Below are positions 3,676 to 11,638 of a DNA stretch of 64,000 nt, piece by piece. Source of the stretch: Bacteroidota bacterium. Its GTDB lineage: Bacteria; Bacteroidota; Bacteroidia; B-17B0; Aurantibacillaceae. The position numbers and the translations under genes were made by a program. The notes below the pieces were generated by a model. The model did no database searches. It was not told where the DNA came from and saw only the letters and a list, made by a program, of their open reading frames with translations. How positions within the stretch are numbered: the first letter of the stretch is position 1; each line of letters starts with the position of its first letter. Location: positions 1-64,000 of the forward strand of contig JAFDXR010000004.1 of assembly GCA_018267825.1 (NCBI GenBank), in the 5' to 3' direction.

Positions 3676-5799
3676 CTAGCGCTCAATAATCATTTTGCGG
3701 TGCAGCACGTGCCCGCCCTGCTGGATCTCCAGCATATAGATCCCGGCCGGTAAATGTGCTGTATGGATCTGCAATTCCTTTTCGGCAGAAACTGTGGCCG
3801 ATACTTTATTGCCCAGCATATCGAATAATACGACCTGGTAGGCAGCACTTGTATTGGATTGAATGGTAAACGACTGGTTGGCCGGATTCGGATAGATATT
3901 CCAGCCATCGTTGGCCTGCTCCGAATGGGCCGATGTAACAAGGCTGTTGCAGGTCATGGCATGAAAGCCATCGAGCTTACCGTAACCAAAGCGGTTGTTA
4001 GGCAGGTTGGTGCCCGTGAACGCATCGGTGTAGGCACAATTTATTATAGCCTGCCTCACCTGCTGGTTGGTGGCCGTAGGGTCCATTTGCAGGTACAAAG
4101 CCGCAAGCCCTGCAACGAGCGGGCTCGCAGCCGATGTTCCGCCGCCAACCACGTGGTAGCCCCCCTGGGCCACTACTTCGGGGTTGCTGCTGATAAGGCC
4201 GGGCAGCATGGAAATCACACCGCAGGATAAACTTGTGGCCCCCGATGCGCCTATTTCGGGTTTTACATGGTTGCGGCGTGTAGGCCCGCGGCTGCTGCTG
4301 GCGCTGATCTGGCCCGGTGTTTCGGTAGTGGTTTGGGTATTGGCTGCCACATCAATAAACTGATTGCGGTTTACATAATTGGCTACGGTAATGACTTCGT
4401 CGCTGCACTGAAAGCTGCTCACAATGGTTTGGTTGGTATCCGATACAATGTATTTTGTAATGCGCGGATACTGTGCCGCTGTAGGCAAGCCATCGTTAAT
4501 TACATCAAAGGTCCAGGCATCGATACGTCCGGGGCCTGTGTTTTCGATGCGCCACAGATAACCGGAGCTGTCGGCATTAACAGACAGATCGAGCTCATAC
4601 ACCCCCGAAGCATTGATGCCGGCTACACTATTTACCACACCTATGCGGTTGGTGTTATGGTAAATGGTATCGTGGCGTGTGCTGCCAATGGGGTAGTTAT
4701 AGGCTTTGAAAGGAATGCGCCCCAGGTCGCTGAAGTTGTTGGGGTTATTGCAACCCACGCTGTATTTTACGTTTTTAATATCGTTGGTATCGGCGTATAA
4801 CGAAAGGGAGAGGCTGTTACCGCTGACGCTGATCCAGAAAAAATTTGTATCGGTGGCTGTAGGGTTATAGCCTACGTGAAACGGTATGGCGCCTGCATTG
4901 CCACCGGCAGCTACCATCACGCGGCCCGGCATGCCCGATATCTGGGCACTGATCATCTGGGCCTGGAGGTCGGTACCGTCGTGGCTGCCCATGTAATCGC
5001 CTACACTGGCATTAATCACAAAGGGTTTTCCGGCGGCATAAGCCTTGGCGGTAATGTAATTGACGGCATCGGCAATGGTGGGTCCGGGGCGGTTAAAATC
5101 GAGGGCTACTACAATGATGTCGGCTTTGGGTGCCACACCTTCGTAATGCCCGATGGCCGAACCGTTGCCTGCAGCGATACCGGCCACATGGGTACCGTGG
5201 CCCCACTGGGCCAGGTCGGTGTGGGTGCAGTTACCGGCATTGATATCGGCGGCTGTCCACTCCTGCCCGTACGAAAACCCCACGGGTATGGTGGTGGGCG
5301 ATGCCACAGTCATATCCCAGATATATTTGATGCGTGTATTGCCTGCAGCGTCTTTAAAATCGGGGTGATGAAAATCGATGCCCGAATCGATGATCCCGAC
5401 AATAACACCGGTACCATCGTAGGCCTGCGTAAGTGGCGACATGCCGGTTTTGGCGGCTATAATGCGGTTGCGCACCATCATGGTATCGGTCATGGTTTTC
5501 ATGCCGGGTTTTATATATTCCATATACAGGATATCGGGATGTGATGCCAGCTGGCGAACCGCGCTGATGGCTGCTGTTACAGAGGCCACGTTGCCGGCGG
5601 TGTAGTGCACGTTTACTCCCTGCATGCTCCTGAGCACCGACAGTTTGCCGGGCCTGACCTGCACCAGTATATCGAGCTGTGTGGCGGCGGGTTGCTCCAT
5701 CTCAAGCTGCTGAATCAAAGCCGGGTTGCAGTTGTGCTGGCTTAGTAAATCAAGAGAAGCAAACGCAAGCAAGATAAAAAATGTGAAACGGTTGAACAT
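3676..5799 (-). CDS. secreted subtilisin-like (S8) serine protease with T9SS sorting domain
   Basis: 707 residues. A signal peptide (1-20) and a prodomain-like region (40-95) precede the S8 catalytic domain. The triad is visible: Asp138 in GIIDSGIDFHHPDF, His201 in GHGTHVAGIAAG, Ser556 in GGGTSAASPLVAGLA. The oxyanion Asn is near 301 (AAGGNAG). About 180 residues (305-485) are inserted between the oxyanion Asn and the Ser, as in large S8 proteases with an inserted beta domain. The C-terminal 70 residues are a type A sorting domain, so the enzyme should be exported through T9SS and anchored or released at the cell surface. Long open frames on the opposite strand are artefacts of composition. 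Confidence 0.93.
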   Translation of the reverse strand: MFNRFTFFILLAFASLDLLSQHNCNPALIQQLEMEQPAATQLDILVQVRPGKLSVLRSMQGVNVHYTAGNVASVTAAISAVRQLASHPDILYMEYIKPGMKTMTDTMMVRNRIIAAKTGMSPLTQAYDGTGVIVGIIDSGIDFHHPDFKDAAGNTRIKYIWDMTVASPTTIPVGFSYGQEWTAADINAGNCTHTDLAQWGHGTHVAGIAAGNGSAIGHYEGVAPKADIIVVALDFNRPGPTIADAVNYITAKAYAAGKPFVINASVGDYMGSHDGTDLQAQMISAQISGMPGRVMVAAGGNAGAIPFHVGYNPTATDTNFFWISVSGNSLSLSLYADTNDIKNVKYSVGCNNPNNFSDLGRIPFKAYNYPIGSTRHDTIYHNTNRIGVVNSVAGINASGVYELDLSVNADSSGYLWRIENTGPGRIDAWTFDVINDGLPTAAQYPRITKYIVSDTNQTIVSSFQCSDEVITVANYVNRNQFIDVAANTQTTTETPGQISASSSRGPTRRNHVKPEIGASGATSLSCGVISMLPGLISSNPEVVAQGGYHVVGGGTSAASPLVAGLAALYLQMDPTATNQQVRQAIINCAYTDAFTGTNLPNNRFGYGKLDGFHAMTCNSLVTSAHSEQANDGWNIYPNPANQSFTIQSNTSAAYQVVLFDMLGNKVSATVSAEKELQIHTAHLPAGIYMLEIQQGGHVLHRKMIIER

Positions 5800-6585: not shown

Positions 6586-7608
6586 ATGGGATTATTTGAT
6601 CTATTTAAAAGAAAAAAAACGAATTCAACATTTCCTGAAAATGAATTAGAACAGGTTTTAATGCAGGCTGCTTCTGACGTATCTGCTCAAAAAACCTTCT
6701 ACCAGAAACTCCTATGGAATGAATTGTTTGTGCTGACAAACGGGGAACAAGGCCTCGATGAAGGTATTCAAACTTTGAAAGAAGATCTGACTTTACAATT
6801 CATCACTTTTGAAAATGGACAAGTCCCTGTTTTTACTTCAACCAATAGAATTTTTGATAATGGTGTGATAAAAGAACAAGTTTCGTATTTGAGTTTAAAG
6901 GGGCAAGATTTGTTTGGAATCATTAAGGGTGCAAGTTTTATTCTAAACCCTTATTCCGAATATCGAAAGGAATTAATTCCAATAGAAATTGAAAGCCTAT
7001 TGAACGGAACGATTTATGACCAGATTGATAAAAACGAAATTGAAAATCAAAAATATCAAAAGTTTAACGAACTATATGAAAGAGCCGGAAAAAAACAGGA
7101 GGGATTAATTTTTCTGGATGGCTATAAAAGAAAAAACTTGACCACATCTGACGAGATAAGACTTAAAGAATCTGTAATGGATTTTCAAAAATGTCTTGAA
7201 ATAATCCCTGATCATTGGCAAAGTATGGTATTGATGGCCAAAGCTCTTCAACGCCTGGAAAGACACGCAGAAGCTCTTGCGCAGCTGGAATTAGCAGCTA
7301 AAATAGAATTAAAAAATCACACAATTCCAATGGAAGCTTCATTAGAAGCTATGCATTTAAAAGATTTTGAAAAGGCCATATATTATTCTGAAGAATCCCT
7401 AAAAAGGAAACCAAATGATTTCGCCCTCATGGGAAATCATGCCATGAATTTATTAATTGCACAAAAAGATATTGAAGCGAAAGACACAATTCAAAAAGCA
7501 ATTAAAATTCAGCCGAATGATTCTATAAACAAGAATATTGAATCCATAGTAACTGACGTGATGGCTGGAAAACGTAAAAGACCTACATTTGAGGATTCCA
7601 TTAAATAG
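6586..7608 (+). CDS. SseB-domain protein with C-terminal TPR repeats
   Basis: 340 residues, cytoplasmic. After the short lead MGLFDLFKRKK, residues about 30-155 match the SseB N-terminal domain: FENGQVPVFTSTNRIF, SYLSLKGQDLFGII, ASFILNPYSEY and IEIESLLNG. Residues about 190-320 form TPR helices (LMAKALQRLERHAEALAQLE, SLKRKPNDFALMGNHAMNLL). SseB-like domains occur in several small cytoplasmic proteins of unclear role. The lead MGLFD-F-K is shared with the gene at 8491. A near-consensus -7 box (TATCTTTA, 6542-6549) lies upstream. It opens the accessory region. Confidence 0.7.
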   Translation: MGLFDLFKRKKTNSTFPENELEQVLMQAASDVSAQKTFYQKLLWNELFVLTNGEQGLDEGIQTLKEDLTLQFITFENGQVPVFTSTNRIFDNGVIKEQVSYLSLKGQDLFGIIKGASFILNPYSEYRKELIPIEIESLLNGTIYDQIDKNEIENQKYQKFNELYERAGKKQEGLIFLDGYKRKNLTTSDEIRLKESVMDFQKCLEIIPDHWQSMVLMAKALQRLERHAEALAQLELAAKIELKNHTIPMEASLEAMHLKDFEKAIYYSEESLKRKPNDFALMGNHAMNLLIAQKDIEAKDTIQKAIKIQPNDSINKNIESIVTDVMAGKRKRPTFEDSIK

Positions 7609-7692
7609 TGCTTTCAAACTTATCTTCCATATTCCGCAGAAATAATACCGGAAAAAAACTGCCTTATTATTCTGCCAATCAAGAATTCATAT

Positions 7693-8403
7693 ATGAAAAA
7701 AGCAATCATCATATTTGTACTCCCTATCCTTCTTTCATTCATTGTGAATAATGAGCCGCCATCAAAATACTATTACAAAGACAGTTCTCAGGTAAACATC
7801 TGGAGTTTTGATGTTGACGATACTGCCATTTATTTGCATGAATTCAACAAAGACCTTTTTGAGTTTAAAGGTGATACCAAAAAATACCAGATATTTTACG
7901 ATAAAAAATTTACGATCCTTGCTGTTGATATGGACCTGTTCAAAAAGGATAGGAAACAGTACTACAAACGTTATAGTCGCAACGGTCAGCTATTAATGTC
8001 GTGGACAAAGCTGAATGATAAATATAACGGAGTTTTGCAACGTTTTTATTCTGACGGCAAAATCAGGTACAAAGAGCATTTTGACAATAACGGAAAGAGC
8101 TTGGGTGATACAACCTGGAGTGAAAGTGGATTACAGGTTCGCTCCAGCATAAACTACAACTCAAAATACTCCAAATTGACTTATTATTATGCAAATGGAA
8201 AGGTCAGTTCAGAACTTTATGAAGGTTCATCAGAGGCCCTTACAAGATTCATAATAGACTATGATAGTATTTCCGGTGCCCCATCCTATTTTTTGTGTCG
8301 CGATACCTCTATTATTAGCATAGAAGAAGGCAATGAAATTAACACGGTATATTACCGAAAAACACCCCTGGACAGCGTCATTGTTATTAAGAAAAACAAT
8401 TAA
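7693..8403 (+). CDS. secreted MORN/YwqK-like repeat protein
   Basis: 236 residues with a short signal peptide (MKKAIIIFVLPILLSFIV). The centre (about 95-180) has three or four MORN-like repeats of the form YxxNGxL...YNGVLQRFYSDGKIRYKEHFDNNG, typical of proteins annotated as YwqK-family antitoxins. That label is historical and gives no function. Related repeat proteins lie at 25132 and 25899. Confidence 0.6.
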   Translation: MKKAIIIFVLPILLSFIVNNEPPSKYYYKDSSQVNIWSFDVDDTAIYLHEFNKDLFEFKGDTKKYQIFYDKKFTILAVDMDLFKKDRKQYYKRYSRNGQLLMSWTKLNDKYNGVLQRFYSDGKIRYKEHFDNNGKSLGDTTWSESGLQVRSSINYNSKYSKLTYYYANGKVSSELYEGSSEALTRFIIDYDSISGAPSYFLCRDTSIISIEEGNEINTVYYRKTPLDSVIVIKKNN

Positions 8404-8490
8404 CTAATCAGGATGCTTTTCCTACCTTTAAAGCACGGGCATATAAATGGTCTATTAAATCAAGTATAAACGGCAATAACGAAACCATCT

Positions 8491-9165
8491 ATGGGACTAT
8501 TCGACATATTTAAAAGCAAAGACAAACAAACCCCTACTCCGCAGACATCTCAAACGACTCAAAAAGACGCTTTGACCAATTTTGACTGCTATTACATTTA
8601 CGGTTTAACGGACAACCCTTTTCGACAATCAAATGATTTCAAATCATTCGGGGAACTTTACAAAAAAGTAATCGGAATAAAAGGCGGAATTGTTATTGGT
8701 AGTTCATTTCATCCCTATCAACTTGTAAATCCAAAAGGGACAACCGCATGGCAGGCAGGTTATGTTCAATTGTATTTAAACAATAAAAAAGACGAAGCTT
8801 TTAATGAAATTATAAATAACAACGGGCTTTTCCTGGTAGATCCGTCATCAGCATTTAAAAACATCATGGTCTGGCCCGACACCCGGTTGACAAATGACGA
8901 AAATCCAATTTTCAGCAAGTATGTTCCCTTTGTTATTCCATTCTTAGTTTACAAACCGGCAAAAGAATTGAACTGGGACATTGAAATAGCATTAGGAATG
9001 GCTACTCAGGGCAATGCCTCTGACTATGTAGGGCAAATAACCAAACTAACAAGATTTATAATGCCGGAACCATCATTCATTTTAGGCTTTGACAAGTTTG
9101 ACGAAACAAACCCGTCAAGACTGATTGACAATTTCATAAACTGTAAAAAAATGTTAGGACAATAA
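8491..9165 (+). CDS. hypothetical protein, MGLFD-lead family
   Basis: 224 residues, no signal peptide or membrane segment. The N-terminus MGLFDIFKSKDKQ resembles the protein at 6586, but the remainder does not. Visible features are a Gln/Thr/Pro-rich linker (15-30) and a globular domain with FDCYYIYGLTDNPF and ELNWDIEIALGMATQG. Function not recognised. Confidence 0.6.
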   Translation: MGLFDIFKSKDKQTPTPQTSQTTQKDALTNFDCYYIYGLTDNPFRQSNDFKSFGELYKKVIGIKGGIVIGSSFHPYQLVNPKGTTAWQAGYVQLYLNNKKDEAFNEIINNNGLFLVDPSSAFKNIMVWPDTRLTNDENPIFSKYVPFVIPFLVYKPAKELNWDIEIALGMATQGNASDYVGQITKLTRFIMPEPSFILGFDKFDETNPSRLIDNFINCKKMLGQ

Positions 9166-9231
9166 ATACGGCCACTGATAAGGGTTTTGCGTTTGTAATT
9201 GTAAATAAATATAAGAACAGAAACAGAACAT

Positions 9232-9340
9232 CAACCCAAATCCTTTGATTCCGAAACATCAAATAAAAACTTATTGTAAATGGGAGTAATAAAATTCACA
9301 GAGACAATTTCACTTGATGAGAATGCGGAAAAGGTATTTG
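9232..9340 (+). repeat. 109-bp direct repeat, copy 1 (leader plus first 20 codons)
   Basis: This block is nearly identical to 11131-11240. It covers the untranslated leader (CCTTTGATTCCGAAACATC) and the first 20 codons of the downstream gene, stopping abruptly at GTATTTG. In copy 2 the reading frame continues into a full SRPBCC protein; here it continues into an unrelated sequence. Confidence 0.85.
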
Positions 9341-9522
9341 TTTGGCGCCCTATGCGGGCCGACAGGATAGAGGAGAATATTTACAGGGTCAAACTGCATC
9401 CGGACTTCGACCCGGATAATGAAGTATTAGCATTTAAGCCCGGTGAAATTGTAGTATGCGAACGACAGAAAAAATCGGGACAATACTGTTTGGTAGCGAT
9501 TAAAAAATCAAACAATGCCTAA
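9280..9522 (+). CDS. chimeric small protein: SRPBCC N-terminus joined to an unrelated domain
   Basis: 80 residues. Residues 1-20 (MGVIKFTETISLDENAEKVF) copy the start of the SRPBCC protein at 11180. Residues 21-80 belong to a different small-protein type, with ADRIEENIYRVKLHP, DPDNEVLAFKPGEIVVCE and YCLVAIKK. That type is common as 60-80 residue bacterial hypotheticals. The junction coincides with the end of the 109-bp DNA repeat, so the gene looks like a recombination product: a borrowed promoter and start fused to another gene's body. Whether it is expressed is unknown. Confidence 0.6.
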   Translation: MGVIKFTETISLDENAEKVFVWRPMRADRIEENIYRVKLHPDFDPDNEVLAFKPGEIVVCERQKKSGQYCLVAIKKSNNA

Positions 9523-9561
9523 AAGTAAAATGCCGGAAGACGGGAAAACAATATTTTTATT

Positions 9562-9585
9562 AAGCCGTTAGCAACAACGCGAACG
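9562..9585 (+). repeat. attC-like half element (GTTAGC end)
   Basis: Only the 3' type end of the intergenic element (CCGTTAGCAACAA) is present, between the stop at 9522 and the start at 9604. It matches the right ends of the elements at 21997 and 24302. Confidence 0.35.
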
Positions 9586-9603
9586 GGTATATACCACAGA
9601 ATC

Positions 9604-9993
9604 ATGAAAAGCAAAATTTTAAATCTTCTCATCATCCTTACTTCGCTTATCGGGTACCTGGAGTGGAGCGGAAACAGCCATACTTTTCTTTTTGAAGCCG
9701 AAGCAGAGATTTTTTCCAGGTTATTTACCGACCCTGTTTCTGTACTTCATCCGTTTACCATACTTCCGCTTATCAGCCAGGTGCTTTTATTCATTACATT
9801 ATTTCAAAAGACCCCGGGTAAAACCCTGACCTATATCGGCATTGCCGGATTGGCTTTGCTTCTGGTGTTTATGTGCATTATCGGAATCATGAGCATGAAT
9901 TTTAAAATAATACTGTCTACTGTTCCCTTTATCGTGGTAGCCGTTTTGACAATAAGGCATTATAGGAAAATGAAACCCGTTTCAAAAACATAA
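9604..9993 (+). CDS. small membrane protein, four predicted helices
   Basis: 129 residues. Hydrophobic segments lie near 5-20, 55-75, 78-96 and 98-118, and the tail is basic (IRHYRKMKPVSK). No family recognised. Confidence 0.6.
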   Translation: MKSKILNLLIILTSLIGYLEWSGNSHTFLFEAEAEIFSRLFTDPVSVLHPFTILPLISQVLLFITLFQKTPGKTLTYIGIAGLALLLVFMCIIGIMSMNFKIILSTVPFIVVAVLTIRHYRKMKPVSKT

Positions 9994-10037
9994 AATAAAA
10001 CACGGACAAATTCCGTTATAAAGACTCACTCCGCCAC

Positions 10038-10520
10038 ATGAGAATTATCCTTATTTTAATTGCAACTTCCCTTTGCTTTTCGTTCGGCAAAAGCTTTTTT
10101 CTGGTCGAAACTTTTTATGTTAAGCTTAATCGACAAAACATCGGACACTGGAACGTAAACAAAAAGATTCCTGAAAAAATAACGGTAAGCTTTAAACAAC
10201 AGACCGACACGTTGTGTTTTGTTGGAGTCAGCGACTGTGGGGCACTTGATGGAACAATCATTAAAATAAAAGACAAAAACGAGTTGATTTTAAAATTAAC
10301 GCGAATATCAGACTCAGGTATTTTAAGAAACGACACGATAATGATAAATCCACAACCTGAAAGGCCTCAAACCTTTGCTCTTGACCATGTCGTTGCTTTT
10401 TACTCAACACCGGCAACATTCAAAAACCTGAAAAGGGGAAAAATATATTCTGTCTACTATGAAAGAATAATTGACAAAGACTCAAAAGAAGTACATATTT
10501 TTGATCTGCAATTAAAATAG
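10038..10520 (+). CDS. hypothetical secreted protein
   Basis: 160 residues with a signal peptide (MRIILILIATSLCFSFG) and a beta-rich mature part. No family recognised. The downstream gap to 10595 holds only a short GC-richer stretch. Confidence 0.55.
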   Translation: MRIILILIATSLCFSFGKSFFLVETFYVKLNRQNIGHWNVNKKIPEKITVSFKQQTDTLCFVGVSDCGALDGTIIKIKDKNELILKLTRISDSGILRNDTIMINPQPERPQTFALDHVVAFYSTPATFKNLKRGKIYSVYYERIIDKDSKEVHIFDLQLK

Positions 10521-10595
10521 GCAGGCAGGTAAGCGTGTAGCACCTGTGTAGCGCTTAAAGCTCAAAACAGTATCAACTTTCAATTTTGAACTAAA

Positions 10596-11086
10596 ATGCC
10601 CTTTGAACAAATTCAGGAATACCTAAACAAATACGCCAAAATCATTTCAGCTCCCGCTAACCTGTTTCCAACATTTGAAAGTTCTGAACAAACAGGGCGA
10701 CCTCACATTGAAGTCGACAATAAGGGCAATTTACATTATGTAGTATGTGAGCGGGGGAAGAGTACGAGCGCAAGACAACAAAAGAATTAAATGAATTACT
10801 ATTTTGGGTTTTTCAATCTATAACTCACACCATGGCGTTTGACTATGAACTTAAGCACAGAATTGAGCACCAGGACTGCAGAATCATAGCATTCAAAAAA
10901 CAGGAAGAACTGCTTGAACAAATAAATAAAGAGTGGGCCGACACCCTAAAACTGAAACATGAAAAACTACTCGCGCCAACAGAAGAAATAAAACGCCTAA
11001 GAAAAGACTACACTGAATTACTGGAATCGCAAGGCCTAACCTCTTGGGAAGCCTGGTTAAAAGCCTGCGAAAAATACCCGGCATAA
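10596..11086 (+). pseudogene. frameshifted Imm63-like immunity protein gene
   Basis: Two adjacent frames together encode one protein. The first (10596-10790) has PTFESSEQTGRPHIEVDNKG and LHYVVCERG. If one G is added to the G5 run at 10753-10757, translation continues as EEYERKTTKELNELLFWVFQ and then MAFDYELKHRIEHQDCRIIAF (frame open to 11086). The combined pattern (PHIEVD, HYV-ERG-E, LLFWVF, YELKHRIEHQDCR) fits Immunity protein 63, which neutralises polymorphic toxins. A one-base loss in a homopolymer may be real decay or a sequencing error. Confidence 0.6.
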
Positions 11087-11130
11087 ATAACGACGCAGCG
11101 TTAAAATATGACCACAAAAACACCTCGCCT

Positions 11131-11240
11131 CAATCCAAATCCTTTGATTCCGAAACATCAAATAATAAACTAACTGTAAATGGAAGTGATAAAATTCACA
11201 GAGACAATTTTAATTGATGAGGATGCAGAAAAAGTATTTG
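11131..11240 (+). repeat. 110-bp direct repeat, copy 2 (leader plus first 20 codons)
   Basis: Partner of the block at 9232-9340. It contains the leader and first 20 codons of the intact SRPBCC gene, so this copy is probably the source. Confidence 0.85.
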
Positions 11241-11638
11241 ACTTTACTCAAGACTACAACAATCGTCTGAAGTGGGATACTTTTTTAAAAAAGGCTGACT
11301 TAACAGACGGCGCACTAAAAGCCGAGAAAGGCGTGAAAGCATACTGTGTTGCCAAAAATGGCATTGGTATGGTAACAGAATATGTTACATATAACAGGCC
11401 GAAGGTTACTGCCATAAAAATGACTAAAGGGCCTTTTATGTTTAAATCATTTTCAGGTTCATGGACATTTAAGAAAATCTCAACTAAAAAGACAGAAGTA
11501 GTTTTTCTATATTCATTCACGCTCAGGTTTCCGTTTAGCCTCCTGAGAACCGCTATAAAAAACAACTTACAGGCAAACGTAAAGCAGCGACTGATTGATC
11601 TTAAACACAACATCGAGAATGAAAGTTCGGATAACTAA
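11180..11638 (+). CDS. SRPBCC (START-like) family protein
   Basis: 152 residues. The order KFTETILIDEDAEKVFDFTQDYNNRLKWDTFL, ... GSWTFKKISTKKTEVVFLYSFTLRF ... (shown in parts) is that of the polyketide cyclase/dehydrase SRPBCC fold, which forms a deep ligand pocket between a curved sheet and a long C-terminal helix (TAIKNNLQANVKQRLIDLKH). Ligand unknown. The length is normal for the family. Confidence 0.75.
   Translation: MEVIKFTETILIDEDAEKVFDFTQDYNNRLKWDTFLKKADLTDGALKAEKGVKAYCVAKNGIGMVTEYVTYNRPKVTAIKMTKGPFMFKSFSGSWTFKKISTKKTEVVFLYSFTLRFPFSLLRTAIKNNLQANVKQRLIDLKHNIENESSDN

What the first reader, a model, noticed from the sequence alone, without database searches (positions are those of the whole stretch)
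9232..11240. Duplicated leader and first 20 codons fused to a different gene body
A block of about 110 bases (promoter region, leader, 20 codons) is nearly identical at 9232-9340 and 11131-11240. Downstream the two genes are unrelated: SRPBCC protein versus a 60-residue domain with FKPGEIVVCE. This is a clean domain-swap at DNA level that gives a gene new expression signals and a new N-terminus.
Basis: partly seen in the sequence, partly recalled or inferred. Interest (0 to 1): 0.6.

Follow-up and report, generated by a model that had tools for sequence, protein, structure and literature searches.

The report
Hybrid gene with a borrowed beginning
A small gene, probably an antidote to a bacterial RNA-cutting toxin, has lost its own beginning and carries a copy of the start of a neighbouring unrelated gene; this is a clear one-off case of gene fusion, and it is not known whether the hybrid protein works.

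Summary
A 110/111-nt block (9231-9340 and 11130-11240; 10 substitutions, one 1-nt indel) is shared by two co-oriented genes and occurs nowhere else in the 4.8-Mb genome. It covers about 50 nt of leader plus 20 codons. The SRPBCC gene (11180-11638) is the native owner of those codons: Pfam Polyketide_cyc2 covers residues 4-146, and a 71%-identical homologue in a family member has the same kind of N-terminus behind an unrelated leader.

The 60-residue body at 9340-9519 belongs to a small, apparently unnamed domain family. All nine other members found carry their own first strand ([IV][YF]VxLLxEG-like) where the hybrid carries SRPBCC sequence. The replacement joins without a linker or gap. The closest relative (66% identical) is the C-terminal domain of a 216-aa protein. 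Two standalone members, one in this genome, lie directly after colicin-E5-like toxin tails, so the domain is probably an immunity domain. The hybrid lies near a frameshifted Imm63 gene in a low-G+C run of short genes.

Best reading: a chimeric gene duplicate that gave a 5'-truncated immunity-domain gene a new translation start. The origin is well supported; retained function is open, and a relic is nearly as likely. A copied promoter is not shown.

The parts
9231..9279 (+). repeat copy 1, untranslated leader of the chimera
   Evidence: about 92% identical to 11130-11179; unique pair in the genome
9280..9339 (+). repeat copy 1, first 20 codons (MGVIKFTETISLDENAEKVF), copied from the SRPBCC gene
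   Evidence: 7 substitutions in 60 nt against copy 2, 4 of them nonsynonymous
9340..9522 (+). 60-aa body of the chimera (probable immunity domain without its native first strand) and stop codon
   Evidence: 66% identity to the C-terminal domain of the L034 protein; paralogue at G000:C1:135323; alignments; G+C 44% against 33% in the copied codons
11130..11179 (+). repeat copy 2, leader of the SRPBCC gene
11180..11638 (+). SRPBCC (Polyketide_cyc2) gene, 152 aa, native owner of the copied codons
   Evidence: PF10604 E 2.7e-17 over residues 4-146; 71% identical homologue in G425 with the same N-terminus
10596..11086 (+). frameshifted Imm63 immunity gene in the same gene run
   Evidence: PF15599 E 3.6e-9 on the second fragment; reading-frame change seen in the three-frame translation
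6586..11638 (+). low-G+C run of short co-oriented genes (SseB-TPR, MORN-like, 224 aa, chimera, 129 aa, 160 aa, broken Imm63, SRPBCC)
   Evidence: gene G+C 33-44%, window 42.5%

Best explanation
A chimeric gene duplicate. The 5' end of the SRPBCC gene (about 50 nt of leader plus 20 codons) was copied about 1.9 kb upstream and joined in frame to the 3' part of a gene of another family, a small beta-rich domain that is probably an immunity protein against colicin-E5-like toxin tails. The join falls just before the conserved [WY]RP[VM] motif, so the SRPBCC first strand takes the place of the domain's lost first strand with no linker. The new gene has a borrowed ribosome-binding region and start codon and may make an 80-aa orphan immunity protein. 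Shown: the repeat, its direction (SRPBCC is donor), the truncation of the second family, the in-frame join. Inferred: the immunity role, that the product folds, that it is expressed, and the recombination route (illegitimate joining; at most about 2 nt of microhomology to the nearest known donor relative).
For: Repeat confirmed and unique in the genome. SRPBCC residues 4-20 lie inside Pfam PF10604, and the G425 homologue starts MSSIKFTESIIINQTSEKIFDFTQDY behind an unrelated leader. The body has relatives in L034 (216 aa, 66%), own contig C1, G543 (two), G602, G575, G652, G477 and G376; all nine carry a native strand of the type IYVQLLNEG in that place and the chimera alone does not. Members on own C1 and in G602 follow Colicin_E5-like tails (PF12106 E 0.005 and 3e-4), in G602 downstream of an Rhs core end (TIGR03696 E 3e-19). 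The alignment to the native domain is ungapped over the first 44 residues.
Against: No sister strain is held, so the event is seen only once and expression is unknown. Structure models of the chimera and of the native domain both have low confidence (pLDDT 44 and 48), so folding cannot be judged. Two changes that the outgroup places on the chimera's copied codons (11 and 12) are both nonsynonymous. An 80-codon frame stays open by chance in 56-73% of simulations with 6-12 random substitutions, so the open frame does not show function. The toxin-tail matches are below Pfam's gathering score.
Confidence: 0.6

Rival explanations
1. A non-functional relic: a 5'-truncated immunity gene left in a decaying gene run, with a chance partial duplication of the SRPBCC 5' end landing in frame before it. 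The open frame is young and simply not yet broken.
For: The neighbouring Imm63 gene is frameshifted. The copied codons show 4 nonsynonymous and 3 synonymous changes in 20 codons, about the divergence of the leader. An open frame is expected by chance. The native first strand is lost.
Against: The join is in frame, without linker, at the register of the native first strand. The body keeps the W/R/P, F.PGE and V.CE motifs.
Confidence: 0.4
2. The repeat is a recombination or integration element of a recombinase-associated immunity array (rAID-like or integron-like) and not a copied gene start; the shared codons are incidental.
For: Short co-oriented genes with at least one Imm family. The two ends of the repeat can pair weakly in a predicted fold. 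An attC-like repeated element flanks the homologue in L034.
Against: Only two copies in the genome. Fold z-scores are -1.45 and -0.3. The half of the repeat that is SRPBCC coding sequence is conserved as protein in G425. No integron integrase: the two best matches skip about model positions 177-239. The nearest recombinase-like match on the contig is about 85 kb away.
Confidence: 0.05
3. Convergence or common descent of the N-termini: the 80-aa family natively starts like SRPBCC proteins.
For: Residues V3, E8, E17 and V19 match the native L034 domain in an ungapped alignment.
Against: 90% DNA identity including the untranslated leader. Nine other members have a different N-terminus.
Confidence: 0.02

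Closest known systems
Chimeric gene duplicates / partial duplication with fusion (reviewed in PMC3449122)
   Same: The 5' part of one gene, including flanking sequence, is duplicated and joined to sequence from another genic source; the body has a homologous genic source elsewhere in the same genome.
   Different: Bacterial and without introns; the join replaces one strand of a small domain; only one case is seen.
Polyimmunity loci and orphan immunity genes (PMC3482391), rAID arrays (PMC12247911)
   Same: Run of short co-oriented genes with Imm63 and a second probable immunity domain; immunity genes without their toxin nearby.
   Different: Only one named Imm family, and it is broken; no adjacent recombinase and no shared intergenic motif apart from this single repeat.
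Colicin E5 and its immunity protein
   Same: Toxin tails next to two homologues of the body match the Colicin_E5 ribonuclease model weakly.
   Different: The standalone C1 homologue matched no Pfam model at E up to 10, nor did the L034 protein; the chimera had no Pfam match at E up to 1 and no NCBIfam match.

Membership tests
Chimeric gene duplicate | part of one gene duplicated, homology ending inside both reading frames | tested here: met
Chimeric gene duplicate | the remaining coding part has an independent genic source | tested here: met
   relatives on own C1 and in at least seven other genomes with different N-termini
Chimeric gene duplicate | ancestral state known from a related single-copy locus | tested here: inconclusive
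   SRPBCC outgroup found in G425; no same-genus genome and no unfused donor of the 60-aa body at this locus
Immunity protein of colicin-E5-like toxins | gene directly downstream of the toxin tail in more than one genome | tested here: met
   met for the relatives on own C1 and in G602, not for the chimera itself, which is an orphan
Immunity protein of colicin-E5-like toxins | neutralises the cognate toxin | not testable with these tools
   needs an assay
Immunity protein of colicin-E5-like toxins | native full-length domain including first strand | tested here: not met
   chimera lacks the [IV][YF]VxLLxEG strand
rAID / recombinase-associated immunity array | adjacent tyrosine recombinase | tested here: not met
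   nearest match to the recombinase model on this contig is at 96 kb, about 85 kb away
rAID / recombinase-associated immunity array | co-oriented short immunity genes | tested here: inconclusive
   co-oriented short genes yes; only Imm63 (broken) is a named immunity family
rAID / recombinase-associated immunity array | conserved intergenic motif at many genes | tested here: not met
   one two-copy repeat only
SRPBCC / Polyketide_cyc2 | full-length domain match (gene 11180-11638) | tested here: met
   PF10604 63.8 bits, cut-off 27.4, model positions 2-142 of 142

The most novel reading that the evidence does not exclude
The SRPBCC first strand truly substitutes for the missing first strand of an immunity domain, giving a working orphan immunity protein: a natural strand-for-strand graft that rescues a 5'-truncated immunity gene in one recombination step.
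Probability: 0.3. Interest if true: 0.6.

Novelty: new member of a known kind. Interest (0 to 1): 0.36.

Why it matters
Bacterial gene fusions are usually inferred from protein alignments of old events. Here the donor's leader and codons are still readable at about 90% identity next to the hybrid, so donor, recipient family and join can all be named. If the product works, it shows how a truncated immunity gene can be rescued by capturing a start from a neighbour. The body also points to a small immunity family for colicin-E5-like toxin tails that the Pfam and NCBIfam models searched here do not cover.

Tried and rejected
Integron or cassette origin: the best integrase_gron matches skip about model positions 177-239, and the 14 control genomes match the model too. 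Multi-copy leader or mobile repeat: only two copies in the genome; the leader is absent from viral contigs. Structured RNA leader: no Rfam match in the repeat (the only match, E 0.14, is at 6971-6995) and fold z-scores of -1.45 and -0.3. Unfused donor gene (216-aa type) elsewhere in the genome: none; only the C1 paralogue matches. Relatives on plasmids or viral contigs: none. Structure models of the chimera and native domain: both under pLDDT 50, so no fold search was run.

Full report
The sequence. Two co-oriented genes share a block of 110 nt (9231-9340) and 111 nt (11130-11240). The alignment has 111 columns, 10 substitutions and one 1-nt gap. The block holds about 50 nt before the ATG and the first 20 codons. 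Left of 9231/11130 and right of 9340/11240 there is no similarity. A local alignment score of 93 compares with at most 25 in 50 shuffles. A whole-genome search (4.82 Mb) finds the two copies and nothing else of note.

Who owns the copied piece. The downstream gene is a complete SRPBCC protein: Pfam PF10604 matches residues 4-146 over model positions 2-142 of 142, so residues 4-20 are part of the domain and not a detachable signal. A 71%-identical homologue exists in one other genome among the 87 of the family that were searched (G425). It starts MSSIKFTESIIINQTSEKIFDFTQDY, the same N-terminus in evolved form, behind an unrelated leader. The SRPBCC gene is therefore the donor.

What the 60-residue body is. 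It has no Pfam match at E up to 1 and no NCBIfam match. A scan of genome contigs for close relatives gave one locus: the last 60 residues of a 216-aa protein of a Chitinophagaceae MAG (L034), 66% identical. Searches of further genomes gave a 73-aa paralogue on contig C1 of the same genome, a 223-codon open frame of the L034 architecture and a second member in G543, and single members in G602, G575, G652, G477 and G376. All nine other members have, just before the [WY]RP[VM]-like motif, a strand of the type IYVQLLNEG. The chimera has TISLDENAEKVF there, which is SRPBCC sequence. The fusion therefore replaced the first strand of the domain and, if the donor had the L034 architecture, an N-terminal domain of about 140 residues too. 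Alignment to L034 runs without a gap from the chimera's first residue to residue 44, so the graft joins without a linker.

Likely role of the body. On contig C1 the 73-aa gene follows a 53-codon open frame that matches the C-terminal part of the Colicin_E5 ribonuclease model (E 0.005), and in G602 the homologous gene follows a 94-codon frame with the same match (E 3e-4), downstream of an Rhs core end (TIGR03696 E 3e-19). Both Colicin_E5 scores are below the curated cut-off, but the same order in two distant genomes is what an immunity gene would show. In the window the chimera shares its gene run with Imm63 (PF15599). Zhang et al. list Imm63 as found in polyimmunity loci, and describe such loci as backups against toxins of non-kin strains (PMC3482391). 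An orphan immunity role is therefore the most likely ancestral function of the body. This is inference.

Function of the hybrid. Between the two copies the 20 codons carry 4 nonsynonymous and 3 synonymous changes, a divergence similar to that of the leader. Of the sites that the G425 outgroup can polarise, two changes, both nonsynonymous and in the strand, fall on the chimera (codons 11 and 12). In simulations 56-73% of 80-codon frames stay open after 6-12 random substitutions, so the open frame is weak evidence. Models of chimera and native domain both have pLDDT under 50. The neighbouring Imm63 gene is frameshifted, which shows decay in the run. I therefore hold the origin as well supported (about 0.9), and a working protein and a relic as about equally likely.

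Expression. The sigma-70-type scan finds no more sites than shuffles and none in the leader; this scan does not cover Bacteroidota promoters. What was demonstrably gained is a start codon with its upstream translation region. The leader has no Rfam match and no significant fold.

Compared with known systems. It fits the definition of a chimeric gene duplicate (PMC3449122). The run resembles a polyimmunity locus, but of the features that define rAID arrays (PMC12247911) two were tested and not met: no adjacent recombinase and no recurrent intergenic motif. No same-genus genome is held, so the event is seen once.

Noticed in passing
window 10596-11086 (+): Imm63 immunity gene split by a frameshift into two open frames (10596-10790 and 10832-11086).
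   Followed up: partly
window 6586 and 8491 (+): Two otherwise different genes of the same run both begin MGLFD[LI]FK, a second shared N-terminus in the run, though without a shared leader.
   Followed up: no
L034:3327-3461 and 4211-4346: A repeated element of about 130 nt flanks the 216-aa homologue gene in the Chitinophagaceae MAG and looks like an integron attC site or a cassette boundary.
   Followed up: no
L053 / G000:C1 about 135.1-135.5 kb: Orphan pair in the same genome: a 53-codon colicin-E5-like toxin tail without a full toxin, followed by a 73-aa probable immunity gene.
   Followed up: partly
L049:1-1651: Rhs core end followed by displaced toxin tails and the immunity-domain gene, a typical displaced-tail array.
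   Followed up: partly
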